From a virus: a stretch of DNA of 41,773 bases. Below the pieces are notes generated by a model that was not told where the DNA came from, ran no database searches, and saw nothing but the letters and a program-made list of their open reading frames with translations. Below are positions 1 to 31,169 of this stretch, piece after piece; the first letter of the stretch is position 1; every line of letters starts with the position of its first letter. The stretch spans positions 1-41,773 of IMG/VR virus record IMGVR_UViG_3300021792_000002, one strand, 5' to 3'. The position numbers were made by a program, and so were the translations under genes.

Positions 1-2421
1 TTCAAAATCAGATACATTACAAATTCCATGCCACTTGAACTCTCGTAGATTGATATTATCGTGAAATCCACCTTGTAAACTTTTCAATCCGGATCCATTT
101 AATATTTCTATTTTAGTAATACCATGTGATGGATCAGTGACAATTAGTTCATCAACTTCGGCAACTCGAAAATACCAAAGTCCATTACCCATATATTTCG
201 CACCTTTGGAGTTTGGAATCCCAATATTAATATATGGTACACCATGTGTCCATATTTTCACAATCAAATCATCCGTAACTGGCCATAGACCAGCCTTGGA
301 ATCCGAACCCATTCTTACAGGATTTCCCGTGTCATTTGGTTCCGTCAAAATCGCAATCCCATCAAATGTATTCACACCATTTCCGTCTGAAAGATTTACT
401 AAATTCAAAGCCGGGATACGTTGTAAGTTTGTACAATTAAACCACGTATAACTCATATCAGTTGCACTAGAAAAATCCATTTCAGGAAGTTCCAACAATG
501 ATGAGCAATTCTTCCACGTACCATAGAAATTAGTTCCATGTGATGTCGTGAGTCCGGTGATATTAGTTAATTTACTACAACCCGACCATGCAAACGAGAA
601 ATCATTAACAACACAATACCCGTTCCACACAAAATCAGTCAAGTTTGTACAACGTGAAAAACTACTCTCCAAACTCGTTAAAGTATCACCCATAATCACC
701 TCAACCTTAGTAATGGCATGTTCAGCATTAAGGTCGGAAAAATGTGTTATTGGATCATCACTAATCAAAGTCCAAGTACCATCACCGTTATTGGTCGAAG
801 TTATCGAACCACCCTCAACAGTTGAAGGCATTGGATCATCCGAACTTGTTATTATTATCTCAAACGTTGCCGGTTTCGGCCCGGTAAGTTCCCAAGTACC
901 TTGTGTTGCATCACTACCGTTTCTTACAGGTGTTCCGGTTGGTGGTGGGTATAACAAAACTGAACAGTTTGAGAATGCGGAGTCTCCATTTGTAACACTC
1001 GAAAAGTCCAACTTCGGAAAATATTTCAATGATACACAATCTTTCCAAGTCCTCCATAAATTTTCAACTTTGGAGAAATCCATTTCAGGGAAAGTTGACA
1101 AATTTGAACATCCATCGAATGCCGAACGCATATTTGTACTATTTGAAAAATCCAATGATGGGAATGTTGTTAATTTTACCAATCCATGAAATGCACTATC
1201 AAAATTAGTTCCTTTCGATACATCAATTTGTGGAAATTCCGTCAATCCATACATACCACTCCACGTACCACTAAAATTAGTTCCATTTGAAAAATCCAAT
1301 GCTGGAAATGTTTCTATACTTGAACATCCATTCCACGTAAGTCGAAAATTAGTTCCATTTGATGTATCAATTTGTGGAATTGCAGTAAGTTGTTTACATC
1401 TATCCCAAGTGGAGTCAAAATCAGTCACATTTGAAGTATTTATCACCGGACACGATGTTAAATTTTCACACCTGTACCAGGTTTTTTTCAAAGTTGTCGC
1501 ACTTGACAAATCCAGTGGTGGAAACGAAGTCAATTCCGTACAACGTCCCCAAGCAGACTCGAAATTAGTTACTTTTGATGTATCCATCATCGGAAACGAC
1601 GTTAAGTTTCGACAGTCATTCCAGGCAAATGAAACATCGGTTAGATTACATTCACCATACCACTCAAAATTTCTAAGAGAGCTACCTTTAAATGCGTTTG
1701 CAAGTGTTTTTAGAGTTCCACCTTTATAAATAATGACATCATAGTAATAAGATACATCTTGTAAACTAAAACCGGTTATATTCTCTTTACTAGTAATATA
1801 CGTATGTGAGTCAATCGTTGTTTTTTCAACAGTTCCACCGGTGAATGCTGAATCGGGTATATTTGTGGCATCCACTCGTACATCAAACGTATTATCAACA
1901 TCATAAACCCCAATTCCAGCGTTATCACCATCCCTAACAGATGTTCCCGTTGGTCCTGGATTTATTAGATTTATACACCCCTTGAATGTATCTACACGAC
2001 TTTCATCACGTAGATTACCAAAACTAAGTGTTGAAATTTCTATTAGATTTGTACACCCCTCGAATGTCCCTTTTACATTAAATGCTTGTAGTAAATCAAA
2101 TCCGGATAACTTAGTTAAACTAGAACAATCCTTGAACGCATATTCCCAATCACGTGGTGTCAATTCGGAGTTCCAAATGAAATCAGTCATATTCACCAAT
2201 CCCGCAAAGGTGGAGTTCACCGTCCACGATTCAAATATGGTTACTTCAATTTTAGTAATATCTTCTTTATTACTAAGTGTTCCAATAGTATTGAGTCGAT
2301 CAGTACTTGTCAAAGTCCAAGTACCATCACCGTTATTGGTCGAAGTTATCGACCCGCCCCCAACATTTGTTGGGTTCGGGTCAGATGTACTCCAAATTTT
2401 TATTTCTAATGTGTTTGCCAT
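1..2421 (-). CDS. BspA-like repeat surface/tail adhesin, 3' end outside window
   Basis: The frame is open from the ATG at 2421 to position 1, giving 807 codons with the C-terminus missing. I read four modules of about 170-230 residues. Each starts with a beta-rich segment (LEIKIWS then a GG pair, GTWTL, ITKIEV) followed by BspA/DUF285-type leucine-rich repeats (FxWNGxCNVTDF, AWxGCSxL, FPxxDxSxGTxF). These are built like the N-terminus of the 3911-residue protein encoded upstream. Its ATG overlaps that gene's stop as TAATG, which implies translational coupling. DUF285 proteins are known as surface adhesins in Mycoplasma, Bacteroidota and protists; in this tail operon a receptor-binding or fibre role is inferred. 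Whether fibre-type repeats follow, as in the neighbour, cannot be seen. Confidence 0.8.
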   Translation of the reverse strand, partial: MANTLEIKIWSTSDPNPTNVGGGSITSTNNGDGTWTLTSTDRLNTIGTLSNKEDITKIEVTIFESWTVNSTFAGLVNMTDFIWNSELTPRDWEYAFKDCSSLTKLSGFDLLQAFNVKGTFEGCTNLIEISTLSFGNLRDESRVDTFKGCINLINPGPTGTSVRDGDNAGIGVYDVDNTFDVRVDATNIPDSAFTGGTVEKTTIDSHTYITSKENITGFSLQDVSYYYDVIIYKGGTLKTLANAFKGSSLRNFEWYGECNLTDVSFAWNDCRNLTSFPMMDTSKVTNFESAWGRCTELTSFPPLDLSSATTLKKTWYRCENLTSCPVINTSNVTDFDSTWDRCKQLTAIPQIDTSNGTNFRLTWNGCSSIETFPALDFSNGTNFSGTWSGMYGLTEFPQIDVSKGTNFDSAFHGLVKLTTFPSLDFSNSTNMRSAFDGCSNLSTFPEMDFSKVENLWRTWKDCVSLKYFPKLDFSSVTNGDSAFSNCSVLLYPPPTGTPVRNGSDATQGTWELTGPKPATFEIIITSSDDPMPSTVEGGSITSTNNGDGTWTLISDDPITHFSDLNAEHAITKVEVIMGDTLTSLESSFSRCTNLTDFVWNGYCVVNDFSFAWSGCSKLTNITGLTTSHGTNFYGTWKNCSSLLELPEMDFSSATDMSYTWFNCTNLQRIPALNLVNLSDGNGVNTFDGIAILTEPNDTGNPVRMGSDSKAGLWPVTDDLIVKIWTHGVPYINIGIPNSKGAKYMGNGLWYFRVAEVDELIVTDPSHGITKIEILNGSGLKSLQGGFHDNINLREFKWHGICNVSDFE
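766..807 (-). repeat. 42-nt exact repeat, copy 1
   Basis: These 42 bases are identical to 2311-2352. Both encode the same segment of two BspA-like modules (around GDGTWTL) of the partial adhesin. Exact identity inside otherwise diverged modules suggests recent duplication or gene conversion. Confidence 0.9.
2311..2352 (-). repeat. 42-nt exact repeat, copy 2
   Basis: Second copy of the 42-base identity with 766-807. It lies near the 5' end of the same reading frame, in the first BspA-like module. Confidence 0.9.
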
Positions 2422-5400
2422 TATTTAATTTGTTTAAGTATTACTAATCCTGAGTCATCCACCACATCAAAGAAACTATTTCCGCTTGGTGACTGTAATT
2501 TTATTTCGATTTTTAAATTATTTTGGTCTGTTATGATATATCTATCCCAAACCTCAACATTTCCGGCTTTTTGTTTTTCTACCAACTCATCCCATGTTAT
2601 CTCAACTCCATCAATACGTTGTACCATATCTTTGATTGCTTGAGTATTAGTTGGTACATCAGCCGTTAGAGTATCTACATAATCCTTTCTAGTTAATTGA
2701 TTTGCTGATGTTGGTTGATGTGATGTTGCTGGCGCGACTCCCTCATCCATTATGATAGAAGTTGAACCATTCACACGTAATCTCATATTACCAACCACAT
2801 GATCAAATGTTATACCCGTATTTTTAGAAGTATCGGTACGAGGATGCATATAGAAACCACCGTCGGTCATTATAATATCCCTATCCTTATCAGTTTCACT
2901 AATTTTAACCTGTGCCGAATGTGTTTCATTTTCAGTAAGAACGATAGCTCCGGTTGGTTTTGGATCATAAACATCAAGTTTTTTGTTTAAATCTTCGGTA
3001 ATTTCACCCAAGTTCAAATCTACCCATACTTTTCCATTACCCTGTGCGTTAGTAGCCAAAACTTGATTTGGATTACCCAATCCTAAAACATGTTCCTTAG
3101 TATTCAACTTATCATCAACATAATCTTTTCTAGTTAATTGATTTGCTGATTTTGGTTGGTATGGTGTTGCCGGTGCAACATCCTCATCCATTATGATAGA
3201 AGTTGTTCCATTAACACGTAATCTCACTAGACCATCAGGTTGGTTGAATACGATACCTGTGTTTTTAGATAAATCGGTACGAGAATGCATATAGAAACCA
3301 ACATTCGACATCACGATGTCATAATCTTTATCAGTTTCACTAATCACATAATGTGCCTCATGCAAACTATTTTCTTTCAGTACCATTACTCCGGTTGGAA
3401 GTGGATCGAAAATATTCAATTTAGTATCCAATCCAGCATCAACGTAATCCTTTCTAGTTAAACTACCACTTTCAGTTGGTTGATGTGATGTCGCTGGTGC
3501 GACTCCCGCATCCATAATGATAGAAGTTTCACCATTAACACGTAATCTCATTTGATTATTATTATTTCTATCAAATGTTATACCCGTGTTTTTAGATAAA
3601 TCATTACGTGAATGTGTATAGAATCCAACGTTTGACATCACGATGTCATAGTCTTTATCAGTTTCACTAATCACATATTGTGCTCTATGTGATTTGTTTT
3701 CTTTCAATACGATTACCCCCGTTGGTTTTGGGTCATACACATCGAGTTTTTCTTTCAACTTACCATCAACGTAATCCTTTCTAGTTAATTGATTTGCTGA
3801 TGTTGGTTGGTATGATGTCGCCGGTGCAATCCCCTCATCCATGATAATGGAAGTTGTTCCATTAACACGTAATCTCATTTGATTATCGTTACCTCTATCA
3901 AATGTTATACCCGTATTTTTATCTTTACTATTATTCAAGTGTGTATAGAAACCGGTATTTGAAACCACGGTTTCATAATTCACATCGTTATCATGGATAA
4001 TGAATTTTGGATCCTTGTATGTTTTATTCGATGTTATGAATAAAACACCGGTCGCACTTGGATTTATGATATTCAATTTAGTGTCCAATCCATCATCAAC
4101 GTAATCCTTTCTAGTTAATTGATTTGCTGATGTTGGTTGGTATGATGTCGCCGGTGCAACTCCCTCATCCATGATAATAGAAGTTGAACCATTAACACGC
4201 AATCTCATTTGATTATTATTACTTCTATCAAATGTTATACCTGTGTTTTTATCTTTACTATTATTAAAGTGAGTATAAAAACCGGTATTTGAAACCACTG
4301 TTTCATAGTTCACATCTTTATCGTGGATAATGAATTTTGGATCCTTGTATGTTTTATTCGATGTTATGAATAAAACTCCAGTCGCACTTGGATTAGTGAT
4401 ATTCAGTTTTTGGTCTAATTTATCCTGTGTTGTTTGTGAATCAAAAACATCTATCCATTTCTTACCATCTGCCTTTGGATTTGTAGATAGAACTTGATTT
4501 GGAGTTCCCAATCCCAATAATGGTTCTTTGGTATCTACATAATCCTTTCTAGTTAATTGATTTGCTGATGTTGGTTGATGTGATGTTGCTGGTGCAACTC
4601 CCTCATCCATGATAATAGAAGTTGTTCCATTAACACGTAATCTCATATTACCAACCGCATGATCAAATGTTATACCTGTGTTCTTATCTTTACTATTATT
4701 TAAGTGTGTATAAAAACCAACGTTTGACATCACGGTTTCATAGTTCACATCATTATCATGGATAATGAATTTTGGATCCTTGTATGTTTTATTCGATGTT
4801 ATGAATAAAACACCGGTCGCACTTGGATTTATGATATTCAGTTTAGTATCAAGTCCAGCATCAACGTAATCCTTTCTAGTTAAACTACCACGTTCAGTTG
4901 GTTGGTATTGTGTCGATGGTGCAATCCCGTCTTTCATAATAATCGAGTCATTACCATTAACTCTCAATACCATTTCCTCAACACTTCCGGTATTGAAAAT
5001 AATACCGGTATCCTTAGTTTTATCCGAATTTAGATGTGTATATAATCCACCATTTGACATTATAGTCTCAACTTTAGACTTTTTCTCTCGAATTATATAC
5101 TGTGCAACCTTATTAGTATCATTGTTTTCAAGAACAACAACACCATTAGGTCTAGGATTTATAATATTCAATTTAGTATCAAGTCCAGCATCAACATAAT
5201 CTTTTCTAGTTAATTGATTTGCCGATGTTGGTTGATGTGGTGTTGCCGGTGCAATCCCATCATCCATTATGATAGAAGTTGTTCCATTAACACGTAATCT
5301 CATTTGATTATTGTTACTTCTATCAAATGTTATACCTGTGTTCTTATCTTTACTATTATTTAAGTGTGTATAGAAACCGGTATTTGAAACCACTGTTTCA

Positions 5401-8400
5401 TAATTCACATCTTTATCACGGATAATGAATTTTGGATCCTTGTATGTTTTATTCGATGTTATGAATAAAACACCAGTCGCACTTGGATTAGTGATAGGTA
5501 ACTTAGTATCTACATAATCTTTTCTAGTTAAACTATCATTCTCGTATGGGTGATATTGAGTTGTTGGTGCAACTCCCTCTTTCATATCAATCGAAGCCGA
5601 ACCGTTAATAGTAAGTTTCATTTTACCATTATCGAAATCTCCAATCATCAATCCCGTTCTAACTTGGTCAACACCAGCGTTACGTGAATAAAATCCACTC
5701 GATGACATCACCATTTCAGTATCCGAATTATGTGATTTTAACACATATTGTGCCTTGTAGAACTTATTAGAAGTTAGATAAACTCTACCTGTTGGATTTG
5801 GATTTATAATAGGTAATTTAGTATCTACATAATCCTTTCTAGTTAAACTTCCAGGTCCAATTGGGTCGTACTTAGAGAATGGTGCAACTCCGGCTGATAA
5901 TTCAAGTGGAGTATCACTATCAACATTCAAATTCAATTGTACCGAATTAACACCTCGTTTGATTTCAAATCCGGTTGTTAATGATCCACTTCCTTTTAAA
6001 TAAGAATATATCCCCCTATCCGTAATTTTTAACTCTCTATCAGTTAAACTCGAACTTATCACAAATAATGGATCCTTATGTGATTTATTCTCCGTAAGTT
6101 TAAGTTGACCCGTTGCACTTGGATTAATAATAGGTAATTTAGTGTCTACATAATCCTTTCTAGTTAAACTATCAGTTTCATATGGATGATATTGAGTTGT
6201 TGGTGCAACACCTTTATCTATAACAAGTGATGTGTCACCCTCGGCCCCAAGATGTAAATGTATTCCGTTATCACGATTAATCTCCAAACCAGTCTTTAAT
6301 GATCCACTACCATTTGGATATGAATAGAAACCACTATCAGTAATTTTTAATTCATGTGATTGGACTGATGAACTTATTGTAATAGTTGGATTCTTCTTAT
6401 TCGATTTATTATCATTAAGTACAAGTTCACCTTTTGCATGTGGGTCGACAATTGGCAATTTGGTGTCTACATAATCTCGTCTAGTTAAAGATCCGGAAGC
6501 AAATGGAAAATATGGTGAAGTTGGTGCAAGACCTTCCGACATCGAAAGTGACACTTTATTATTCACCATTAAATTCAGATGTGGTGATTTACCCAGATCA
6601 CCTTGTTTGATTTCAACCCCAGTCTTAACCGTATCATCATTTTTTAAATATGAATATAAACCACTATCAGTAATTTTTAATTCCTGTGGTTTAACCGATG
6701 AACCTATCACAAATGATGGATTCTTATGTAATTTACTCTCCGTAAGTTTAAGTTGGCCCGTTGCATGTGGGTCAATAATTGGCAATTTGGTGTCCACATA
6801 ATCTCGTCTTGTTAAAGATCCAGATTCATATGGATAGAATGGTGTTGTTGGTGCAACGCCATCGTTCAACTCCAACGTAATAGTATCATTGATTACAAAA
6901 TCAACATGTCGATTCATACAATCAATATTCATACCCGTTGCCTGAATTTTTGGTTCCGTTGTAGTCGGTTGGTGATACGTAATAATACCACTTTCCGTAA
7001 TAGAAGTCCTGTAATCCCCTTGACTCAATAATATCTTTGGATTGTCATCCTTACTTTTGGAAATTGTCAATATTCCACGAGCATGTGGATTAACTACATC
7101 TAGTTTCTGGCCCAACCCAAGATCAACGTAATCCTTTCTAGTTAAACTATCTCTACGCGATGGTGGATATTGAGTTGTTGGAGCCAATTCTTTCCTTAGT
7201 TCCAACGAAACATCACCACCAACACCAAATCTCAATCTCATAAGATCCGTCTTTTTAGACATATCAATGTCAAACCCAGTCCACTCATCCTCACTACCTT
7301 TATGATATGAATAGAAACCACTATCAGTAATTTTTAATTCATAATCCTTGTATTTTGAGGAAATCTTGAATATTGGGTCCTTGTAATCCTTGTTGGAAAT
7401 AAGTTCCATCTTACCGGTTGGGATTGGATTTATGATAGGTAACTTAGTATCTACATAATCTTTTCTAGTTAAACTTCCCGATGCATGTGGTATATATGGA
7501 GTCGTTGGTGCCACGCCTGAATCGAACGTTACCGAAGTTCTTCCAAATATATCAATTTGCATTCTGTTTATAATGTGGTCAAACACAATTCCGGTTCTAC
7601 TAGGTTTGTCACCGGTACGTCTTGTATAGAAACCGGTATCCGACATCACAATCTCATGATTGGTTCCGTAGTCCGTTACAATAAATTGGGCTTTCTCATC
7701 ATTATTCTTTCTTAAAACCATTTTACCGGTTGGTTCCGGATTTTTAATAGGTAATTTAGTGTCTACATAATCTTTTCTAGTTAAACTACCACTTTCGGCT
7801 GGTGAATATGGAGTCGTTGGTGCAATTCCACGTTCAAATTCCATTGAAATACGGCCACCAACTTTAAGTGCCATAGTTTGCCAACCTTGATTGAATGTTA
7901 TACCCGTTTCCTTTGTAGAATCTGTAAGTGGATATGTATAAAAACCACGTTCCGAAATAAGTATTTTCCTATCAGTTTTATTTAAAATAATAGTAGGTTC
8001 TTGGTCCTTATCCTTTCCAATGGTTAGGATTCCGGTTGCAACCGGATTACTAACATTCATCTTTAACGATAATCCAAGATCAACATAATCTTTTCTAGTT
8101 AAACTTCCTGATTCGGTTGGTGCATACTTAGTTGTTGGTGCCATTAGTGGACCAAGTTCCATTGTAGAATGTCCATCAATTTTGAACTCGATATGGTTTA
8201 CATCTTTATCTTTTGGAGAATCAGGTTGTGCCTGTGTGTCTCGTATAAAGAACATTCCCATATCCTTGTAAATATCATATTTTGGATATGTAAACACCCC
8301 AGCATTGGTCAACGTTGTTACATAATCCACATTACTTTGAATTATAGAAATTCTCGAATTCGGTTGATCATCAGTTTCAGTAATAATGAACTCTCCCCTA

Positions 8401-11400
8401 GCCTTTGGATTTAATATAGGTAACTTAGTATCTACATAATCTTTTCTAGTTAAACTACCACTTTCAGTTGGTTGATATTTTGTTATTGGTGCAGTACCCT
8501 CTCTCAATACAATTGATGGGTCGTCATTAACAACAAGTTTCACAACATCAGTTTCACCAGTCTCATCACCATTAATAAGAATACCACTTTTCCCTGATAT
8601 ATCTTCATTGTTTGGATTTGATTTGTCATAAAATTTACTAGGTAGAGGATCCTTTTGAGCATAAAACCCTAGATCATCCACGATGAAATTAACTCCACGG
8701 TTGGAAACAATGTATTGTGGGTCATGATCTTTAGTTTTTCTAATAATCATCTGTCCAAGTGGACGTGGATCTATTATATTCAACTTCAAAGAAAGACCGT
8801 AATCTACATAATCTTTTCTAGTTAAACTTCCCGATTCGGTTGGAGCATACTTAGTTGTTGGGGCAAGACCCTCATTTATTTCAAGTGAAAATTTAGATTC
8901 TGCTCCTAAACGAAGTTTATATTTATTTCCAGGTGACGATGGTTTATCCGATTTAACAGGATCGAAGAACATACCAACTCTTGTGTCAGCATCATCAATA
9001 TCACGAGAATAAATACCGTGATTATTAATAACAACCTCTCGATCTTCCGTATCTCCTCGATCATCTATAACAATACGTGGAGCTTCACCGTTAGGTCCCT
9101 CGGTCATCATAAGTGTTCCAAAACCCTTTGGATTTAATTTGTCCATTTTCTCGAACAACCCACTATCAACGTAATCCTTTCTAGTTAAACTATCTTTATG
9201 TAATGGTGGATATTGCGTTGTTGGTGCAACTCCCTCTTCCATTTCAATAGATGTGAACCCATTAACATCCAAACGTAATTTAGTTGTCTTGAAATCATCG
9301 AACATTAACCCCGTTCTAACTTTATCATCACCAGCCTTACGTGAATAAAAACCAGTTTCAGACATCACCATCTCTGTATTGCTATCCTTACCGGTCAATA
9401 CATACTGTGCCTTGTAGAACTTATTAGAAGTTAGATAAACTCTACCATTCGGTTCAGGATTAATAATAGGTAACTTAGTATCTACATAATCCTTTCTAGT
9501 TAAACTACCACTTTCCTTTGGTTCATATTTTGTTGTTGGTGCAATACCACCAGTCAATTCGATAACAGTGTCACCATCAACTTGTAACCTCATTTTATGA
9601 TTTACATGGTCTAATAATACACCACTTTCTTTATTAGGTTCGGCATTTGGTCTTGAATAAAATCCAGATCCCGCCATTACAATTTCGTAATCCTTAGTTG
9701 TGTCACGAACTATGTATTGTGGTATAGTATGTTCCAAACTTTCACCAAGTATCATGATTCCCATCGCCTTTGGATCGAGAATAGGTAACTTAGTGTCAAC
9801 ATAATCCTTTCTAGTTAAACTAAATGACTCCGTTGGTTGGTATTTTGTTCCAGGTGCCTTACCATCTTCAATCACCAACGATGTTTTTCCGTTTACACTG
9901 AAATCCATTCTAGCATTGGTATCACGATCGAATGTCATTCCTGTAAATTTGGAATGGTCGTCTTTAGGACGTGTAAAGAAACCTTTATCAGACATTATAA
10001 TCTCGTGATCCTTTTTAGTTTCACGAATAACATACTGTGTTTCACCTGATTTTAAACTATCCAAAACAACTTCCCCAAATAAATGTGGATTGTATTTTTG
10101 AACATACATATCCAATCGACCATCCAAGTAATCTTTTCGTATCAAACTCTCGTCAGCGGTTGGGGCATATTTGGTTGATGGAGCAACTCCCTCTTCCAAT
10201 ATAATCGAAGTTTTACCGTCTACCTTAAATCTTACCAAATTGTTAGTTTGGTCAAATATCATACCGGTATATTTCATATTATGATTACCCATACCACTAT
10301 TTTGAGAAGTATCTTCCCTATGGTATGTGTAGAAACCGGCATCCGACATTACCACATCATGGTCTTTATCAGTCTCACTTAATACTATATGTGCACGTTC
10401 CTTATCATTTTCTTTAAGGATCATTACACCCGTTCCAATTGGATTATCCTTTTGTAATTTATTATATGCTGGTTCCCATGGTACCCAAAATGTTCCGTCA
10501 TGTTCCCATTTCAAACCAAGACCACCATCAAAAGTAAATCCTAATTTTCCTGGAATATTAACCGGTTCTTCTGTTGTTCTAATTTTTGGTTCGTATGAAA
10601 CCGTGTTATTAATCTCATCGTTTGAGAAAACAACAGATGGCCAAATACCATTCTGTACCGCTTCATCCCCGTTTCTAACAGATGTTCCGGTTGGAGCAGG
10701 TCCTATCAAATTATCACACCCCTTGAATGCATCAGTTCCATTCTCTAGTGAACTAAAGTTTAACTCCTGAATTTTATTCAAAGAAATACAATCTTCCCAT
10801 GTACTAATGAATTCAACACCTTGTGAAAAATCAAATCCTCCAATCGAAGATAATTTTGAACACCCTTTCCAAGTTTTATTAAATACCGTAATGTTACAGT
10901 CTCTTCCCCAAAGAAACTCTTCTAAGTTTACCAAATCAGTGAAAGAACTTTCCAAACTCGTCAGTGTCTCACCGTTGATTACTTGGATTTTTGTAATGTA
11001 TTCACCATTTAATAAATTCTTGAAATGTGTAATAGGGTCATTACTATAAATTGTCCAAGTTTTGGTTTTTGGTCCATTCCATTTAGTATGAATTTCACCA
11101 CCCGCAACCGTTAATGGTAATGGGTCCTCTTGACTCCAAACAATAATCTCTAATTTGTTTGGTAATACCCAAGTCCCCTTTACCGCATCATTTCCATCCC
11201 TAACACTCGTACCTTGTGGTGCTGGTGAAATTAGACTATCACATCCATAGAACGTGTCAAGTCCATTTTTCTTTTCTTTTAATCCACTAAAATCAAGTTC
11301 TTTTATTTCAACCAATCTCGAACAGTGATTCCATGCACCACTGAACATTGTACCATGTGAGAAATCCATTTTAGGGAATACCGTAAGAGAATCACATAAA

Positions 11401-14156
11401 TTCCAAGCATCTCTAAAGTTTTCAACATTACATGCCCCATGCCAAACAAAATCTCGCATTTGGTTCATGAACATAAATGATTGCTCCAAACTTGTTAGAG
11501 TCTCCCCTCGTATTACCTCAATTTTTCTAATACTTTTTGCACCAAGAACCCATGAAAACCATGTAATTTTTTCACCACTACTCCATATCCAAGATTCAGT
11601 ATCGTATTTTTCAACAATAATCGCACCACCCTCAACCTCTAATGGTTTAGGTTCAAGTTCTTCACCATTTTCGTTTGTAGATGGTGCCCACACACGAACT
11701 AAAAATTTATCACTTTTCCATTTTCCTTGTAATGCATTTTCTTGATCACGAACACCCGTTCTCATCGGTAATGGATTCACCAAACTGTTACAACCCGCAA
11801 ATGCATTTATACCATTATCAGGATTATCAAGACTTCCGAAATCTAATTTATCAAATGTCTCCAGATCAAAACAATCTTTCCATGTGTTTCTGAAATCCGT
11901 TCCATTTGAAAAATCCAATTTTGGGAATGTTTTAAGTTTTGAACAACCCGCCCAAGTGTTTTTGAAATCAGTACCATTCCCAACTTCCAAATTCGGAAAT
12001 TCGGTAAGTAAAGAACAATTCATCCACGTTCCACTGAAATTTGTTCCACGTGAAACATCCAACTTAGGGAATGATCTAAGTTTTGTACAACCCGACCATG
12101 TTCCGGTAAAACTCAATCCATTTGAAACATCCAAATTAGGGAATGATTTCAAATCAGCACATCCGTACCAAGTACCATTAAAATTGGTTCCTTTTGAAGT
12201 ATCAATTTTAGGGAAAGTTTTAAGACTTGAACAGTGACCCCATGCGAACTCAAAATCAGTTACATTACAAGCATCTCTCCAAATAAACTCTTCCAAGTTG
12301 ACCAATCCACTAAAAGTTCGCTTCAAACTTGTTAAAGAAGTTGCATTTAATATTTCAACTTTTGTTATATCTTCTACATTAGATAATCCACTAAAATGTG
12401 TAATTTCATCGGTACTGTGTAAAGTCCACATACCATCATAACTTTCAGAAGAAACAATAGTTCCACCATCAACAATTGAAGGCATTGGGTCACTTTTAGA
12501 CCATATTAATACTTCAAATTTAGGTGGTGTCCACGTTCCACGGTTTGCATCCGAACCGTTACGAATAGATGTCCCAATCGGTGCTGGGTATTTTAACCTA
12601 TCACAACGTCTAAATGTATCTTCACCACTTGTCAAATTAGAAAAATCCAATATTCTGAAATATGTAAGTGATGTACATCCGTACCAAGTATTATCAAAGT
12701 TTAATCCATTTGAAAAATCCAATGATGGAAACTCGGTTAAGGCAGAACATCCACTCCACGTACCCTCAAATTCAAGTCCATGTGTAACATCAATCTGCGG
12801 GAATTTCTCCAATTTAGAACAACCGTGCCAAGCATCGGTGAAATCAACAACATTACAATCACCATTCCAAATAAACTCGGTCATTTGGGTAGCATTACGG
12901 AATGTGTTTTCTAAACTAGTTAAAGTTTCTCCCTTTATTACCTCAATTTTAGTAATTTCCCTTACACCCGAAAGTCTTTCAAAATGTGTTATCGTGTCCG
13001 TACTAGTAACCATCCAAATACCGACCTCAACACCGATAGTTTCAATGTCTCCACCACTATAAAGTCTAGGACTTGGATCAGTTGGAGACCAAATTTTAAT
13101 TTCTAACTTATTAGGTAATGTCCAAGTTCCCTGTGTTGCATCATCACCGTTTCTTACAGGTGTTCCGGTTGGTTCCGGTCCTGTCAATGATGGGCATCCA
13201 AAGAATGTTCCGACACCACTTTGTAGATTTGAAAAATCAAGTTCCTTAATCTCCTGTAAATGTGAACACCCTGCCCAAGTTTTGTCAAACTGAACTCCGT
13301 TTGAGAAATCCATTTTAGGGAATTGTTCCAATTTTGAACATCCTGCCCAAGCTCTCTTGAAATTTTCTACATTACATGTTCCGTTCCATACAAAACTAGA
13401 AAGATTAGTACAGTTACTAAACGTATCTTCCAAACTAGTTAAAGTATCTCCCTTTATTACCTCAATTCTCTCAATCTTTGAGTTCTTGTTGAAATCAGAA
13501 ATATATGTAATACCATCATCACTCGATAATGTCCAAGTTCCGTCAGCATTACCATATGATTTTATAGTACCACCTTTTATTACAGAAGGCATTGGATCAG
13601 ATGAACTCCAAACTGTAATTTCTAAACCGGTTGGTCGAACCCAAGTACCACGTTTTCCAAGATCACCATCTCTAACAGTAGTTCCTGTTGTAGGTGGATA
13701 TAATAAATTTTTACATCCCTTAAATGTGTCGGTTCCACTCACCAAGTTAGTAAAATCCAACTTTCGGATTTCATATAAGTTCACACAGTTTTCAAACGTA
13801 TGTTGAAAACTAGTTCCTTTTGAAAAATCAATTTCAGGTAAAGTAGTAAGATTACCACACAACGACCAAGTGTAATCGAAATTCGTTACATTACAATCAC
13901 CATTCCAAATAAACTCGGTCATAGTAGAAAATCCTTTAAAAGTATTTTCTAAACTAGTTAAAGTTCCACCTTTCACTACCTCAACCTTAGTGATCGTTTC
14001 GGCACCCAAGACAGTGTCAAAATGACTTATGTCATCAATACTAGTCCAAGTCCAAGTACCGTCTGCATTGTCATTTGTAAATATAGTTCCACCGGATACA
14101 TTAAATGGTTTACATTCGATTGGTGACCATATCTTTATTTCAAATTGATTCTCCAT
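2421..14156 (-). CDS. Giant tail-fibre adhesin: 6 BspA-like modules plus 23 tandem fibre modules
   Basis: A 3911-residue protein. Residues 1 to about 1170 are six modules of a beta segment (LEIKIWSP..., ITKIEVIKG, TLTSLE) and BspA/DUF285 leucine-rich repeats (WNGDCNV, GCSxLxxFP). A linker of about 60 residues (KLGFTFDGGLGLKWEHDG) follows. Then come about 23 repeats of roughly 95-140 residues, each ending in a variant of PTxxGSLTRKDYVD, a motif common in phage tail fibres. Each repeat holds (I/F)xISxxDxDxE(I/V)VMSxxGFY and MRLRVNGxTSIxMxxGVAP. The last 60 residues (ITWDELVEKQKAG to ILKQIK) match the C-terminus of the next gene upstream. No signal peptide or membrane segment is seen. The start overlaps the upstream stop as TAATG. 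Best reading: a long tail fibre or host-range adhesin; which end faces the host is unknown. Confidence 0.85.
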   Translation of the reverse strand: MENQFEIKIWSPIECKPFNVSGGTIFTNDNADGTWTWTSIDDISHFDTVLGAETITKVEVVKGGTLTSLENTFKGFSTMTEFIWNGDCNVTNFDYTWSLCGNLTTLPEIDFSKGTSFQHTFENCVNLYEIRKLDFTNLVSGTDTFKGCKNLLYPPTTGTTVRDGDLGKRGTWVRPTGLEITVWSSSDPMPSVIKGGTIKSYGNADGTWTLSSDDGITYISDFNKNSKIERIEVIKGDTLTSLEDTFSNCTNLSSFVWNGTCNVENFKRAWAGCSKLEQFPKMDFSNGVQFDKTWAGCSHLQEIKELDFSNLQSGVGTFFGCPSLTGPEPTGTPVRNGDDATQGTWTLPNKLEIKIWSPTDPSPRLYSGGDIETIGVEVGIWMVTSTDTITHFERLSGVREITKIEVIKGETLTSLENTFRNATQMTEFIWNGDCNVVDFTDAWHGCSKLEKFPQIDVTHGLEFEGTWSGCSALTEFPSLDFSNGLNFDNTWYGCTSLTYFRILDFSNLTSGEDTFRRCDRLKYPAPIGTSIRNGSDANRGTWTPPKFEVLIWSKSDPMPSIVDGGTIVSSESYDGMWTLHSTDEITHFSGLSNVEDITKVEILNATSLTSLKRTFSGLVNLEEFIWRDACNVTDFEFAWGHCSSLKTFPKIDTSKGTNFNGTWYGCADLKSFPNLDVSNGLSFTGTWSGCTKLRSFPKLDVSRGTNFSGTWMNCSLLTEFPNLEVGNGTDFKNTWAGCSKLKTFPKLDFSNGTDFRNTWKDCFDLETFDKLDFGSLDNPDNGINAFAGCNSLVNPLPMRTGVRDQENALQGKWKSDKFLVRVWAPSTNENGEELEPKPLEVEGGAIIVEKYDTESWIWSSGEKITWFSWVLGAKSIRKIEVIRGETLTSLEQSFMFMNQMRDFVWHGACNVENFRDAWNLCDSLTVFPKMDFSHGTMFSGAWNHCSRLVEIKELDFSGLKEKKNGLDTFYGCDSLISPAPQGTSVRDGNDAVKGTWVLPNKLEIIVWSQEDPLPLTVAGGEIHTKWNGPKTKTWTIYSNDPITHFKNLLNGEYITKIQVINGETLTSLESSFTDLVNLEEFLWGRDCNITVFNKTWKGCSKLSSIGGFDFSQGVEFISTWEDCISLNKIQELNFSSLENGTDAFKGCDNLIGPAPTGTSVRNGDEAVQNGIWPSVVFSNDEINNTVSYEPKIRTTEEPVNIPGKLGFTFDGGLGLKWEHDGTFWVPWEPAYNKLQKDNPIGTGVMILKENDKERAHIVLSETDKDHDVVMSDAGFYTYHREDTSQNSGMGNHNMKYTGMIFDQTNNLVRFKVDGKTSIILEEGVAPSTKYAPTADESLIRKDYLDGRLDMYVQKYNPHLFGEVVLDSLKSGETQYVIRETKKDHEIIMSDKGFFTRPKDDHSKFTGMTFDRDTNARMDFSVNGKTSLVIEDGKAPGTKYQPTESFSLTRKDYVDTKLPILDPKAMGIMILGESLEHTIPQYIVRDTTKDYEIVMAGSGFYSRPNAEPNKESGVLLDHVNHKMRLQVDGDTVIELTGGIAPTTKYEPKESGSLTRKDYVDTKLPIINPEPNGRVYLTSNKFYKAQYVLTGKDSNTEMVMSETGFYSRKAGDDKVRTGLMFDDFKTTKLRLDVNGFTSIEMEEGVAPTTQYPPLHKDSLTRKDYVDSGLFEKMDKLNPKGFGTLMMTEGPNGEAPRIVIDDRGDTEDREVVINNHGIYSRDIDDADTRVGMFFDPVKSDKPSSPGNKYKLRLGAESKFSLEINEGLAPTTKYAPTESGSLTRKDYVDYGLSLKLNIIDPRPLGQMIIRKTKDHDPQYIVSNRGVNFIVDDLGFYAQKDPLPSKFYDKSNPNNEDISGKSGILINGDETGETDVVKLVVNDDPSIVLREGTAPITKYQPTESGSLTRKDYVDTKLPILNPKARGEFIITETDDQPNSRISIIQSNVDYVTTLTNAGVFTYPKYDIYKDMGMFFIRDTQAQPDSPKDKDVNHIEFKIDGHSTMELGPLMAPTTKYAPTESGSLTRKDYVDLGLSLKMNVSNPVATGILTIGKDKDQEPTIILNKTDRKILISERGFYTYPLTDSTKETGITFNQGWQTMALKVGGRISMEFERGIAPTTPYSPAESGSLTRKDYVDTKLPIKNPEPTGKMVLRKNNDEKAQFIVTDYGTNHEIVMSDTGFYTRRTGDKPSRTGIVFDHIINRMQIDIFGRTSVTFDSGVAPTTPYIPHASGSLTRKDYVDTKLPIINPIPTGKMELISNKDYKDPIFKISSKYKDYELKITDSGFYSYHKGSEDEWTGFDIDMSKKTDLMRLRFGVGGDVSLELRKELAPTTQYPPSRRDSLTRKDYVDLGLGQKLDVVNPHARGILTISKSKDDNPKILLSQGDYRTSITESGIITYHQPTTTEPKIQATGMNIDCMNRHVDFVINDTITLELNDGVAPTTPFYPYESGSLTRRDYVDTKLPIIDPHATGQLKLTESKLHKNPSFVIGSSVKPQELKITDSGLYSYLKNDDTVKTGVEIKQGDLGKSPHLNLMVNNKVSLSMSEGLAPTSPYFPFASGSLTRRDYVDTKLPIVDPHAKGELVLNDNKSNKKNPTITISSSVQSHELKITDSGFYSYPNGSGSLKTGLEINRDNGIHLHLGAEGDTSLVIDKGVAPTTQYHPYETDSLTRKDYVDTKLPIINPSATGQLKLTENKSHKDPLFVISSSLTDRELKITDRGIYSYLKGSGSLTTGFEIKRGVNSVQLNLNVDSDTPLELSAGVAPFSKYDPIGPGSLTRKDYVDTKLPIINPNPTGRVYLTSNKFYKAQYVLKSHNSDTEMVMSSSGFYSRNAGVDQVRTGLMIGDFDNGKMKLTINGSASIDMKEGVAPTTQYHPYENDSLTRKDYVDTKLPITNPSATGVLFITSNKTYKDPKFIIRDKDVNYETVVSNTGFYTHLNNSKDKNTGITFDRSNNNQMRLRVNGTTSIIMDDGIAPATPHQPTSANQLTRKDYVDAGLDTKLNIINPRPNGVVVLENNDTNKVAQYIIREKKSKVETIMSNGGLYTHLNSDKTKDTGIIFNTGSVEEMVLRVNGNDSIIMKDGIAPSTQYQPTERGSLTRKDYVDAGLDTKLNIINPSATGVLFITSNKTYKDPKFIIHDNDVNYETVMSNVGFYTHLNNSKDKNTGITFDHAVGNMRLRVNGTTSIIMDEGVAPATSHQPTSANQLTRKDYVDTKEPLLGLGTPNQVLSTNPKADGKKWIDVFDSQTTQDKLDQKLNITNPSATGVLFITSNKTYKDPKFIIHDKDVNYETVVSNTGFYTHFNNSKDKNTGITFDRSNNNQMRLRVNGSTSIIMDEGVAPATSYQPTSANQLTRKDYVDDGLDTKLNIINPSATGVLFITSNKTYKDPKFIIHDNDVNYETVVSNTGFYTHLNNSKDKNTGITFDRGNDNQMRLRVNGTTSIIMDEGIAPATSYQPTSANQLTRKDYVDGKLKEKLDVYDPKPTGVIVLKENKSHRAQYVISETDKDYDIVMSNVGFYTHSRNDLSKNTGITFDRNNNNQMRLRVNGETSIIMDAGVAPATSHQPTESGSLTRKDYVDAGLDTKLNIFDPLPTGVMVLKENSLHEAHYVISETDKDYDIVMSNVGFYMHSRTDLSKNTGIVFNQPDGLVRLRVNGTTSIIMDEDVAPATPYQPKSANQLTRKDYVDDKLNTKEHVLGLGNPNQVLATNAQGNGKVWVDLNLGEITEDLNKKLDVYDPKPTGAIVLTENETHSAQVKISETDKDRDIIMTDGGFYMHPRTDTSKNTGITFDHVVGNMRLRVNGSTSIIMDEGVAPATSHQPTSANQLTRKDYVDTLTADVPTNTQAIKDMVQRIDGVEITWDELVEKQKAGNVEVWDRYIITDQNNLKIEIKLQSPSGNSFFDVVDDSGLVILKQIK
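3988..4075 (-). repeat. 88-nt exact repeat within fibre array, copy 1
   Basis: Eighty-eight bases identical to 4753-4840, covering the INPSATGVLFITSNKTYKDP segment of two fibre modules. Close relatives lie near 4330-4405 and 5415-5500. Confidence 0.9.
4753..4840 (-). repeat. 88-nt exact repeat within fibre array, copy 2
   Basis: Second copy of the 88-base identity with 3988-4075, 765 nt away. It is long enough to serve as a substrate for homologous recombination between modules. Confidence 0.9.
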
Positions 14157-15406
14157 TATTTTATTTGTTTAAGTTTTACCACTCCCTCTTCGTCGATAAT
14201 ATCAAAGAAACTATCTCCACGAGGAGTTTGTAATTTTATTTCTATTTTTAAATATTCTTGGTCAGTTATAATATATCTATCCCACACATTTACCTTTCCA
14301 TCTAATTGTCTCTGAACAAGTTCCGACCACGTTATCGACATCGGTATATATTCCACATCGTCGGCAGTTATATACTTGGAATCATCCACAGATCCATCTG
14401 CCTTTAAAAATTGATCAGAAGTTCCTCCCGGTTTTATAAATCGGTCGCCATATATTTCTTTAGAAATTATCAACTTCCCATCATTAGAACGGTTCAAATT
14501 TACCAATTCCAGTTTATCACCTGTTTTATAATTCAATCCAAAAAATACGGATTCCCTCGTTGTATTCAAGAACGGTTCACCAACTTCAAGTTTATTTGGT
14601 GTAAACGGTCCCTTTCTTATTTGATAAAGTGTTGTCGACATATCATCTATTTTTATTATATTTGTATCAAGATCCCAAACAATTCGATTAGGTCTAAGAA
14701 CTTGTGTTGTTGTTGGTTTATTATTATATCTTGCTGGTAATAGGTAACCCTGGACAGTTAGTGTACATGTTGCCTTTACAACTCGTTTATTACCATCACT
14801 AACTTCGGAAGTCGTGTCAAATGAGTCGGCCTCCACGTTGAATTTGTACCCATCGGGAACTCCCCAATATTCATCAACTGCCCACTCGATTTGTTCCACC
14901 ATTTGGTTAAGGTGTTCCGTGTAATCCGCCCACATGATACACTCATACTGAACAATTACATAATCCGGAATAGTTACGTTGTAAATACTCGTTGGTAGTT
15001 GTTGTTTCAACATTTTGGAAAATAAATCATATTTTCGTTTCCTCGAATATTTTGCGTATGCTGGGTATGAAACATGTCGATTATGTCTCGATGCCATGTC
15101 ATCATTTCGTTCAACCGATGTTCGTTTTATTACAACTAATGGTGCCTGGATTTGATCCAATTCATCACGAAAAAATCCATCTCGTTGTATTGATTTCCAA
15201 CGTTCGGCACTTCCATAAATTACGGGTACCTCAACCGGTTTATCCTTGAAACCATTCTTGGAATTTCCACCGACCTTTAAAACAGGCATTACCACATTTT
15301 TCAAGTGATTGACTATTGCAGTGTCAATGTCGGTCAATGTGACCGACGTTGATTTAAAATTGTCATCCTGTTCGAGATCTAATATTCTATCTTCTACATT
15401 TCCCAT
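14156..15406 (-). CDS. gp15: gp15-like tail terminator/sheath stabiliser with fibre-like C-terminal extension
   Basis: A 416-residue protein. The first 235 residues resemble T4 gp15, the hexameric protein that caps the tail and joins it to the head: VPVIYGSAERWK, PDYVIVQYECIMWADY, LNQMVEQIEWAVDEYWG and a closing ATCTLTVQGYLLP. T4 gp15 is about 270 residues. The extra 180 C-terminal residues contain GGTSDQFLKADGSVD, a fibre-type motif, and a 60-residue ending (ITWSELVQRQLDG, DRYIITDQ, KLKQIK) shared with the downstream giant fibre. Its ATG overlaps the gp14-like stop and its stop overlaps the fibre start, both as TAATG. The gp15 call rests on motif similarity and on position after gp13 and gp14. 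Confidence 0.75.
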   Translation of the reverse strand: MGNVEDRILDLEQDDNFKSTSVTLTDIDTAIVNHLKNVVMPVLKVGGNSKNGFKDKPVEVPVIYGSAERWKSIQRDGFFRDELDQIQAPLVVIKRTSVERNDDMASRHNRHVSYPAYAKYSRKRKYDLFSKMLKQQLPTSIYNVTIPDYVIVQYECIMWADYTEHLNQMVEQIEWAVDEYWGVPDGYKFNVEADSFDTTSEVSDGNKRVVKATCTLTVQGYLLPARYNNKPTTTQVLRPNRIVWDLDTNIIKIDDMSTTLYQIRKGPFTPNKLEVGEPFLNTTRESVFFGLNYKTGDKLELVNLNRSNDGKLIISKEIYGDRFIKPGGTSDQFLKADGSVDDSKYITADDVEYIPMSITWSELVQRQLDGKVNVWDRYIITDQEYLKIEIKLQTPRGDSFFDIIDEEGVVKLKQIK

Positions 15407-15960
15407 TAATAGTGATTATCTTCTATTTGAACTTGTGATTTTCTTACCAAGAATGCCGATGCTATCAATTCCATTCGGGTATCCTCACTTTCTGTATTAT
15501 ATTTATCGTACATGGTTGTCATTCCACCAATTAATCTATTTTCACGAACATTTGCAATCTCGTAATATTGACCATCATAGAACACAATATCCCCAATTTC
15601 GGGATACCCATATTTTAGATTTTGAATTGAACCAACCGGTGTAGGTTGTCCGTGAATATCCTTAATATATGGTATTTCATGTGTTCGTAATCTTTGTCGA
15701 TTAAATCTAAACTCAATTGGTTGTTCAACATCAGGTCCAAACCCATCATAGGTGATATTCCTTGGATCTCTCTCTACCAAACACATTAAAGTTGCTGGTG
15801 AATGGTAAATTTTACCCAATGATTCTCCGTATATGTTTACTTTACTCTCACCTACCGAAAGTTTGTATAATGTTGCCCATTGTTCTACCAAATAATCTAC
15901 AACCTCTTCCGAAATTGTTTTGATAAATCCAAGGTCGTTTGTGTGAAAAAATTTACCCAT
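15406..15960 (-). CDS. gp14: gp14-like neck protein
   Basis: A 184-residue protein. T4 gp14 works with gp13 in the neck that joins the head to the tail. The segment YGYPEIGDIVFYDGQYYEIANV looks like the 'pass through a beta-strand pair' core of gp14 (EGDLIYF...FEI in T4). LMCLVERDPRNITYDGFGPD is typical of T4-like marine phage relatives. It is shorter than T4 gp14 (256 residues). It lies 11 nt after the gp13-like gene and is coupled to the gp15-like gene. The assignment leans on gene order; the sequence match alone is weak to moderate. Confidence 0.65.
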   Translation of the reverse strand: MGKFFHTNDLGFIKTISEEVVDYLVEQWATLYKLSVGESKVNIYGESLGKIYHSPATLMCLVERDPRNITYDGFGPDVEQPIEFRFNRQRLRTHEIPYIKDIHGQPTPVGSIQNLKYGYPEIGDIVFYDGQYYEIANVRENRLIGGMTTMYDKYNTESEDTRMELIASAFLVRKSQVQIEDNHY

Positions 15961-15971
15961 TCTTTATGTTT

Positions 15972-17120
15972 TTATCCAATGAATATTGGAATTGGAACTC
16001 TGTTTAAAATTTCTTGTTGTTGTTGTGAAATTGTCGACTCGTTCTCCATTTGTTTTATTCGAGAAACCTCTTCAAGATTTTCACGTAATTGTGTTATCAA
16101 TGTTTCTTTTTCAGTTAATGCCTCCGAACGTAATGCCGCCCCATCCAACGTTACCTCGTTACCCGGTATAGGAATAGATGAATATTTCTCACGAATTGCT
16201 CCTAATAATTCCTTTGCTAGGGCTAAAGCGTATTTTCTAATCCATTGTAATCCAACATCATTAATATCAGAATATTTTGCGAAATTATACCCAACATTTG
16301 AAAAATCAGAAATAGAATCCGGTACAATTGTCACGTTATCTCCAATTTCATCACTCAACATATATTCAAACCAAAGTGTTGAACGTTTTTGTGGTATAGG
16401 AAATATCGTAAGTTTGTTATTTACAATATTAAATGAATGTGCCGATTTTCTAATTTGGTCATTCAATTCAATTTGCTGGATTCTTAATAAATCCTCATAA
16501 ATCGGCATTAATACGAACTGTACCGATGGTGACATTCCACCCCAACCAAATGAATCCATTGTGTTCATTGTACCTTGACCGGTCATTGAATATGGATCGA
16601 AAAATCTATTGATTGCTGGTGTTGCCTCATAGTAAACGGTCATGATGTCCATACGTTTACCTTTCTCATGGTTATCAGACCATAATTTCTGTAAATCATA
16701 CACTTGTCTACCCGGTTCTAGTTCTATACTTCCTTTTTTAAGGTCTACACGTCCACCGACACCAGCCAACGAACCATATGATTCCGAAATTCGGATTATG
16801 TTGTGGATATTTGAACCTTGTACCGATTTTCCTGTATATGAAACGTGTGTTGGTCCACCCTCTAGTAATCCTAAATTATTTCTAATATTAAATTGATTTA
16901 TTTGAGCGGAATATTCGGAAATTGCCTCCTCAAAAACAGCATATAAGTTTTTTGGTGTTAATTCGATATCCACAATAGGATAACCTAATCTAGTAACACA
17001 CCAATCAGCAAATTTAGGAGCATCCTCTTGAAATTGTGGATCATTATCATATATACCGAACGGAGTATCCCCCGGAATAAATACTAAATCCTCACCGGTC
17101 CATACTTTTGATTCCGACAT
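15972..17120 (-). CDS. gp13: gp13-like neck protein
   Basis: A 382-residue protein. T4 gp13 forms the portal-proximal ring of the neck. Matching landmarks are FADWCVTRLGYPIVDIELTP near the N-terminus (T4: RRLGAPIINVELTP), AISEYSAQ, GSNIHNIIRI, and the C-terminal WIRKYALALAKELLGAIREK followed by VTLDGAALRSEALTEKETL. Start and end order are collinear with T4. The protein is longer than T4 gp13 (309 residues) through internal insertions and a C-terminal glutamine-rich tail (SQQQQEILNR). It heads the gp13-gp14-gp15-fibre operon, just after a candidate late promoter at 17155-17164 and the terminator of the preceding gene. Confidence 0.88.
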   Translation of the reverse strand: MSESKVWTGEDLVFIPGDTPFGIYDNDPQFQEDAPKFADWCVTRLGYPIVDIELTPKNLYAVFEEAISEYSAQINQFNIRNNLGLLEGGPTHVSYTGKSVQGSNIHNIIRISESYGSLAGVGGRVDLKKGSIELEPGRQVYDLQKLWSDNHEKGKRMDIMTVYYEATPAINRFFDPYSMTGQGTMNTMDSFGWGGMSPSVQFVLMPIYEDLLRIQQIELNDQIRKSAHSFNIVNNKLTIFPIPQKRSTLWFEYMLSDEIGDNVTIVPDSISDFSNVGYNFAKYSDINDVGLQWIRKYALALAKELLGAIREKYSSIPIPGNEVTLDGAALRSEALTEKETLITQLRENLEEVSRIKQMENESTISQQQQEILNRVPIPIFIG

Positions 17121-31166: not shown

Positions 31167-31169
31167 ATT

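What the first reader, a model, noticed from the sequence alone, without database searches (positions are those of the whole stretch)
2421..14156. A 3911-residue adhesin joining BspA repeats to 23 fibre modules
Combining six cell-surface-type BspA/DUF285 modules with a tandem LTRKDYVD array in one phage protein is unusual. The length would give a very long fibre. BspA-like repeats in Bacteroidota bind host and bacterial surfaces, so the phage may have captured a host adhesin to change receptor use.
Basis: partly seen in the sequence, partly recalled or inferred. Interest (0 to 1): 0.62.

Follow-up and report, generated by a model that had tools for sequence, protein, structure and literature searches.

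The report
Giant BspA-tipped phage fibre beside neck gene
A bacterial virus related to T4 carries a 3,911-residue fibre gene that joins six leucine-rich adhesion modules to 23 repeated shaft modules, and it ends in the same small domain as the tail-terminator protein made by the neighbouring gene, which suggests a very long, sticky fibre that belongs to the neck/tail-terminator region.

Summary
In detail: one uninterrupted 3,911-codon ORF at 2421-14156, on the minus strand, with 6 BspA-type LRR modules (aa 1-1172) and 23 tail-fibre modules ending LTRKDYVD (aa ~1235-3828). The predicted LRR module (pLDDT 89) matches bacterial BspA-type LRR proteins (Z 13.1). A second BspA gene (1-2421, cut by the contig end) follows at once. 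The window is a fragment of a T4-like myovirus. The gene before the giant is gp15, the tail terminator, with a fibre-like C-terminal extension whose last 60 residues recur at the giant's C-terminus (69% identity). Across IMG/VR relatives, gp15 extensions of two other domain types also recur in the 1-3 genes just downstream, so this is a neck/tail fibre locus. The 'captured host adhesin' story is not supported: the same N-cap + LRR module occurs on other phages, including the distal end of a tail fibre in a 281-kb phage, and giant DUF285 genes in jumbo phages are published. New are the combination, the reversed order (BspA N-terminal) and the tag shared with gp15. Best reading: a long virion fibre with adhesive LRR modules, probably held through its C-terminus near the neck; anchoring is inferred.

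The parts
2421..14156 (-). Giant fibre/adhesin gene, 3911 aa
   Evidence: single open frame, ATG start, translation-coupled (TAATG) on both sides
13641..14156 (-). BspA module 1 (aa 1-172): N-cap plus LRR repeats; no signal peptide apparent
13122..13640 (-). BspA module 2 (aa 173-345)
12531..13121 (-). BspA module 3 (aa 346-542); AlphaFold model pLDDT 88.9, pTM 0.86; LRR fold
11718..12530 (-). BspA module 4 (aa 543-813), expanded with extra ~24-aa LRR units
11169..11717 (-). BspA module 5 (aa 814-996)
10641..11168 (-). BspA module 6 (aa 997-1172)
10455..10640 (-). Linker between BspA part and shaft (aa 1173-1234)
   Evidence: no PHROG or Pfam match
2673..10454 (-). Array of 23 tail-fibre modules ending LTRKDYVD (aa 1235-3828); modules 16, 18, 19, 20 are 87-92% identical in DNA (recent duplications)
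2424..2603 (-). C-terminal ~60-aa domain (aa 3852-3911) shared with the C-terminus of the gp15-like protein
   Evidence: 69% identity, E 6e-25; nt 78% over 144
14156..15406 (-). gp15-like tail terminator (aa 1-245 core) with phage-specific fibre-like C-terminal extension
   Evidence: profile match to T4 gp15 E 7.6e-5; homologues in Mel-JY01, immuto, LR756508; a relative matches PF16724 T4-gp15_tss at E 1.8e-4, below its cut-off
14159..14335 (-). copy of the shared C-terminal domain at the end of the gp15-like protein
1..2421 (-). Second BspA protein (at least 807 aa, three full modules and part of a fourth; cut by the contig end), starting at the giant's stop
   Evidence: DUF285 E 1.8e-6
15406..15960 (-). 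neck-region gene conserved in Mel-JY01 and LR756508 (184 aa)
15972..17120 (-). head-tail adaptor (PHROG 211 Ad2), 382 aa

Best explanation
The giant ORF encodes a virion fibre. Shown: (a) six N-terminal N-cap + BspA-type LRR modules, (b) 23 tandem tail-fibre modules that would form a shaft, (c) a C-terminal ~60-aa domain of the same kind as the one ending the tail-terminator (gp15) protein encoded just upstream, (d) a second BspA gene right after it, (e) position just after gp15, where relatives carry fibre-like genes before the tail sheath. Inferred: it is assembled into the virion; the LRR modules are the adhesive, receptor-binding part (glycan or surface protein); the shaft (very roughly 100-180 nm by analogy with known fibres) sets them far from the particle; the fibre docks through its C-terminal domain, shared with gp15, at or near the neck, so it would be a collar-type fibre with its polarity reversed relative to ordinary N-anchored fibres. 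The shaft lengthened by tandem duplication (modules 16, 18, 19, 20). The confidence given is for 'virion fibre with adhesive LRR modules'; C-terminal docking at the neck alone is about 0.3.
For: Array matches tail-fibre PHROG 8378 (E 1e-49), and the end of the module occurs singly near the C-terminus of a fibre in a 281-kb phage. BspA fold predicted with high confidence; best matches TpLRR Z 13.1, E. ventriosum 4h09 Z 11.7, B. ovatus 4fdw Z 10.6. In the 281-kb phage, BspA modules with related N-caps sit in the C-terminal part of a protein whose N-terminus resembles that of its sister fibres, and a BspA gene follows a tail-fibre gene in L017. gp15 identity of the neighbour. Shared C-terminal tag gp15/giant E 1.9e-24. 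The same arrangement with two unrelated domain types in relatives: L060, L063, L074 (E 6e-35 to 2e-66), the L040 type (E ~1e-8), and a profile of the commonest type built from gp15 ends only: 25 non-gp15 ORFs in 21 loci, 23 with the domain at the C-terminus, all within the few genes after gp15. Fibre-like genes between gp15 and sheath in immuto. Adhesion by BspA (T. forsythia) is established knowledge, not tested here.
Against: No virion proteomics or microscopy. The shared end domain could be the exposed tip rather than an anchor, or the trace of recombination. No relative of the window's exact C-terminal domain was found. The fibre-module model is confident only within modules (mean pLDDT 57) and no trimer could be modelled. 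Many of the loci that support the gp15 pattern are near-identical sequences, so the number of independent cases is far below 21.
Confidence: 0.6

Rival explanations
1. A conventional tail fibre: attached by its N-terminal part (the BspA modules act as connectors to the tail) with the shared C-terminal domain as the receptor-binding or trimer-capping tip; gp15 acquired a copy of the tip by recombination.
For: Most known tail fibres are N-anchored (established knowledge); the giant and the second gene share N-terminal BspA modules; the shared 3' end is 78% identical over 144 nt, as a recombination trace would be.
Against: BspA modules are in the C-terminal part of related phage fibre or tail proteins; the modules have the fold of adhesion-type LRRs; the sharing between gp15 and the next genes recurs with other domain types.
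Confidence: 0.25
2. Recent capture of a host (Bacteroidota) surface adhesin to alter receptor use.
For: Fold best matches bacterial BspA-type cell-surface LRR proteins.
Against: Closest sequences are viral and share the N-cap as well as the LRR; no confirmed relative in 84,980 prokaryote genomes by the pattern scan; G+C of the gene (0.356) is close to that of the window (0.338).
Confidence: 0.1
3. A cell-wall or secreted protein made in the infected cell, not part of the virion.
For: BspA/DUF285 proteins in bacteria are surface proteins; no virion evidence here.
Against: No signal sequence or membrane anchor visible; tail-fibre shaft modules; position and coupling in the head/neck gene run.
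Confidence: 0.05

Closest known systems
DUF285/BspA (PARCEL) giant ORF 200 (19,254 nt) and ORF 287 of Vibrio jumbo phage vB_VhaM_pir03 (PMC7765460)
   Same: very large phage genes containing BspA/DUF285 repeats
   Different: no LTRKDYVD shaft or tag shared with gp15 is described there; its genome was not examined here
S-SKS1 SWZG_00142 (353 aa) and S-CBWM1 gp93 (336 aa) cyanophage proteins
   Same: BspA-type repeats of the same sequence type, encoded in structural gene clusters
   Different: short, single repeat block, PKD-like front part rather than the same N-cap, no shaft modules
BspA-bearing fibre of the 281-kb IMG/VR phage contig 3300028534_000514 (1463 aa)
   Same: BspA modules with related N-caps on a fibre; the phage also has the end of the LTRKDYVD module, on other fibres
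   Different: N-terminus like that of its sister fibres, BspA at the C-terminal side, LTRKDYVD module on separate genes about 30 kb away
T4-type long tail fibre subunits (gp34/gp36, e.g. Aeromonas phages)
   Same: weak similarity of shaft modules
   Different: no BspA part; no profile match of the module in Aes508 at E 0.001
T4 whiskers (fibritin, wac)
   Same: a fibre associated with the neck, gene near gp13-gp14-gp15 (established knowledge)
   Different: fibritin is a short coiled coil attached by its N-terminus; no sequence similarity was tested or shown

Membership tests
BspA-type LRR (DUF285 PF03382 / LRR_5 PF13306) | Pfam match above the curated cut-off | tested here: inconclusive
   second ORF module 28.1 bits, over cut-off 25; giant's own modules tested stay below cut-off (LRR_5 15.8 of 27.7)
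BspA-type LRR (DUF285 PF03382 / LRR_5 PF13306) | LRR solenoid fold like solved BspA-type proteins | tested here: met
   model pLDDT 88.9; TpLRR Z 13.1, 4h09 Z 11.7, 4fdw Z 10.6; profile E 7.6e-9 to 4fs7. Foldseek alone gave no PDB match under E 0.001
BspA-type LRR (DUF285 PF03382 / LRR_5 PF13306) | surface adhesion to ligands | not testable with these tools
   needs a binding assay
Phage tail fibre (PHROG 8378 kind) | homology to a tail-fibre profile | tested here: met
   E 1.1e-49, 6 stretches
Phage tail fibre (PHROG 8378 kind) | homotrimeric shaft in the virion | not testable with these tools
   monomer prediction only, beta modules at pLDDT ~80 with low-confidence links
Phage tail fibre (PHROG 8378 kind) | N-terminal attachment domain shared with sister fibres (usual, not universal, in tail fibres) | tested here: inconclusive
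   starts directly with a BspA module; the part shared with a neighbouring structural protein is C-terminal; the second gene also starts with a BspA module, and other fibres of this phage are unseen because the contig ends
T4 gp15 tail terminator (the preceding gene) | gp15 core homology | tested here: met
   profile E 7.6e-5 to 4huh, 8.7e-5 to 3j2m
T4 whisker (fibritin) | coiled-coil fibritin sequence with foldon | not tested
   no direct comparison was made

The most novel reading that the evidence does not exclude
In this clade of T4-like phages the tail-terminator gp15 carries a C-terminal docking domain that is repeated on the proteins encoded right after it, forming a neck-mounted fibre system; here it mounts a reversed, C-terminally anchored giant fibre that presents BspA adhesin modules at its free N-terminus.
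Probability: 0.25. Interest if true: 0.7.

Novelty: new variant of a known kind. Interest (0 to 1): 0.48.

Why it matters
It ties a BspA-type adhesin, a fibre shaft and the tail-terminator ring together, and points to a recurrent, exchangeable fibre locus (gp15 plus the genes after it) in environmental T4-like phages. If the shared end domain is a dock, it would show how phages mount adhesive fibres at the neck and give a simple rule for finding such fibres in metagenomes.

Tried and rejected
tblastn of the shaft in phages gave nothing at 1e-5 and weak T4-like gp34/gp36 hits when E up to 10 was allowed. C-terminal domain: no PHROG or phage relative worth citing and no viral relative; a motif search for similar ITW..YIITD ends in all fetched loci found only the two window copies. 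Spurious Pfam hits on the giant (Urease_beta, TruB_N, etc.) rejected as chance in a repetitive protein. The DUF285 six-frame search gave no hit in window or controls: a first-look failure, not absence. VIA-align of the shaft found only weak OspA-like sheet matches, Z at most 6.3, and BFVD matches with TM below 0.2: not used. No solved structure matched the shaft profile. Kin of a virus record cannot be drawn.

Full report
WHAT IS THERE. The window is a linear 41,773-base IMG/VR virus record, probably a fragment. On the minus strand it carries terminase, portal, protease, a T4-type major head protein (closest: uncultured 484-kb phage LR756508, Microcystis phage Mel-JY01, Flavobacterium phages immuto, Rhodothermus phage RM378), a head-tail adaptor (PHROG 211), a 184-aa neck-region gene, a 416-aa gene, then the giant ORF, 3911 aa at 14156->2421. 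The giant starts on the stop of the 416-aa gene and stops on the start of a further ORF in the same way (TAATG).

ANATOMY. Residues 1-1172 are six modules of 172-271 aa, each an N-cap followed by ~24-aa leucine-rich units (F.xxTW.GCS.L..FP..D.S.G); one is lengthened by extra units. Residues 1235-3828 are 23 modules, most of about 104-110 aa, each ending APTT.Y.P....LTRKDYVD; a profile of the modules finds exactly 23, and the motif never appears in 1000 shuffles. Modules 16, 18, 19 and 20 are 87-92% identical in DNA while most other pairs are 46-60%, so the 3' part of the array has expanded recently. The last ~60 residues match the end of the preceding 416-aa protein at 69% identity (tblastn E 6e-25; 26 codons identical, 12 synonymous and 18 non-synonymous changes over the last 56 codons). 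The next ORF (1-2421, cut by the contig end) is another BspA protein with three full modules and part of a fourth.

IS IT REALLY BspA-TYPE? The second gene's longest module passes the DUF285 cut-off (28.1 bits, E 1.8e-6). The giant's own modules that were scanned do not pass Pfam cut-offs, but a profile of all nine modules finds the solved BspA-type LRR proteins 4fs7 (E 7.6e-9) and 4gt6 (E 6e-6), and the AlphaFold model of module 3 (pLDDT 88.9, pTM 0.86) aligns with T. pallidum TpLRR (Z 13.1, 165 residues, 3.5 A), E. ventriosum 4h09 (Z 11.7) and B. ovatus 4fdw (Z 10.6). Foldseek alone gave no PDB hit below E 0.001, so the fold call rests on the profile and on VIA-align; other LRR proteins such as SHOC2 score nearly as high, so the fold says LRR, and the sequence profile says BspA-type. 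Among viral models the best are S-CAM8 and S-SKS1 proteins.

WHERE DO THE MODULES OCCUR ELSEWHERE? The N-cap plus LRR composite occurs in IMG/VR contigs L017 (two copies, next to a tail-fibre gene) and L016, and, more distantly, in the C-terminal part of a 1463-aa fibre of a 281-kb phage whose N-terminus resembles that of its sister fibres (one N-cap there is significant, two are marginal). That same phage has the end of the LTRKDYVD module, singly, on other fibres about 30 kb away. Thus both halves of the giant are known phage fibre parts; their fusion in one protein, at this copy number, and with BspA first, was not found in any other record searched. Two pattern scans of 84,980 prokaryote genomes gave no relative, but they only reach close relatives. 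A published precedent for very large DUF285 phage genes exists (Vibrio phage pir03, ORF 200, 19,254 nt; PMC7765460), where the authors also noted that G+C gave no sign of transfer.

THE NEIGHBOUR IS gp15. An alignment of the 416-aa protein with its Mel-JY01, immuto and LR756508 homologues finds T4 gp15, the tail terminator / sheath stabiliser (E 7.6e-5), and a homologue in L060 matches PF16724 T4-gp15_tss (E 1.8e-4, below that family's cut-off). The core is aa 1-245; the rest is an extension absent from LR756508, with the fibre-type motif GGTSDQFLKADGSVDDSKY and the tag shared with the giant.

A RECURRENT ARRANGEMENT. From 80 IMG/VR loci around the adaptor gene, gp15 is found in nearly all, often with an extension and sometimes as two or three tandem copies. 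Searching each extension against the genes downstream in the same locus gave hits in the next one or two genes in a large minority: L060, L063, L074 (E 6e-35 to 2e-66, practically the whole next protein), the L040 type (E ~1e-8 to 1e-10), L038 (5e-7) and the window (1.9e-24). The extensions fall into unrelated types, and the window's is on its own. A profile of the commonest type, built only from gp15 ends, finds 25 further ORFs in 21 loci, 23 with the domain at the very C-terminus, all in the few genes after gp15. Many of these loci are near-identical, so I would count them as a handful of independent cases, not 21; I did not cluster them formally. In immuto the whole stretch from gp15 to sheath is fibre-like and structural genes; in Mel-JY01 and LR756508 the sheath follows gp15 at once or after one small gene. 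So the giant sits in an interval that gains fibre genes, and sharing its end with gp15 follows a local pattern rather than being an accident of this contig. None of the 80 loci showed a BspA or LTRKDYVD match, but many of these contigs are short.

HOW IT MOST LIKELY WORKS. Shown: modules, fold of the LRR module, position, shared end. Inferred: virion fibre; LRR modules as the adhesive part (as on the 281-kb phage fibre and in bacterial adhesins); shaft of fibre modules, very roughly 100-180 nm if it extends like known trimeric fibres; shared C-terminal domain as a dock at the gp15 ring. The order is then reversed compared with ordinary N-anchored fibres. The main rival is the ordinary polarity with the C-terminal domain as tip. 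I weigh the fibre/adhesin reading at 0.6, the ordinary polarity at 0.25, and host capture at 0.1.

LIMITS. No virion evidence; contig ends inside the second BspA gene; the shaft could be modelled only as a monomer (modules at pLDDT ~80, links and end domain low); host unknown (relatives infect Bacteroidota and a cyanobacterium).

VERDICT. Observation confirmed; fibre/adhesin reading supported; host-capture reading not supported. New variant of a known kind, with the gp15-tag pattern as the more general lead.

Noticed in passing
window 29985-31979 (-): The terminase large subunit is encoded in two ORFs whose facing ends look like an atypical split intein: the N half ends ...GAAQE|CLGGDHKVTIRNDGDISEITLEELYNLM*, the C half begins with ~105 aa ending ...NLFITDNNLITHN|CDVSF; Mel-JY01 TerL aligns 4-246 to one and 241-532 to the other from residue 106. 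Likely trans-splicing, reminiscent of the AceL-TerL type (from memory).
   Followed up: partly
window 34603-39513 (-): A 1636-aa protein joins cytidylyltransferase-like, CCA/poly(A)-polymerase head, DUF5661, polynucleotide-kinase-like and HD domains: a possible fused RNA-repair enzyme; an RNA-ligase-like gene (E 0.0016, below cut-off) is next to it at 33363-34535.
   Followed up: partly
L036-L115: gp15 tail terminator occurs in two or three tandem copies with fibre-like extensions in many IMG/VR contigs.
   Followed up: partly
L038:6922-10902: A 1327-aa fibre-like protein in the same locus of a close relative carries a cadherin domain (E 7e-9).
   Followed up: no
window 19486-20853 (-): Homing (HNH-type) endonuclease-like gene directly after the major head protein.
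   Followed up: no
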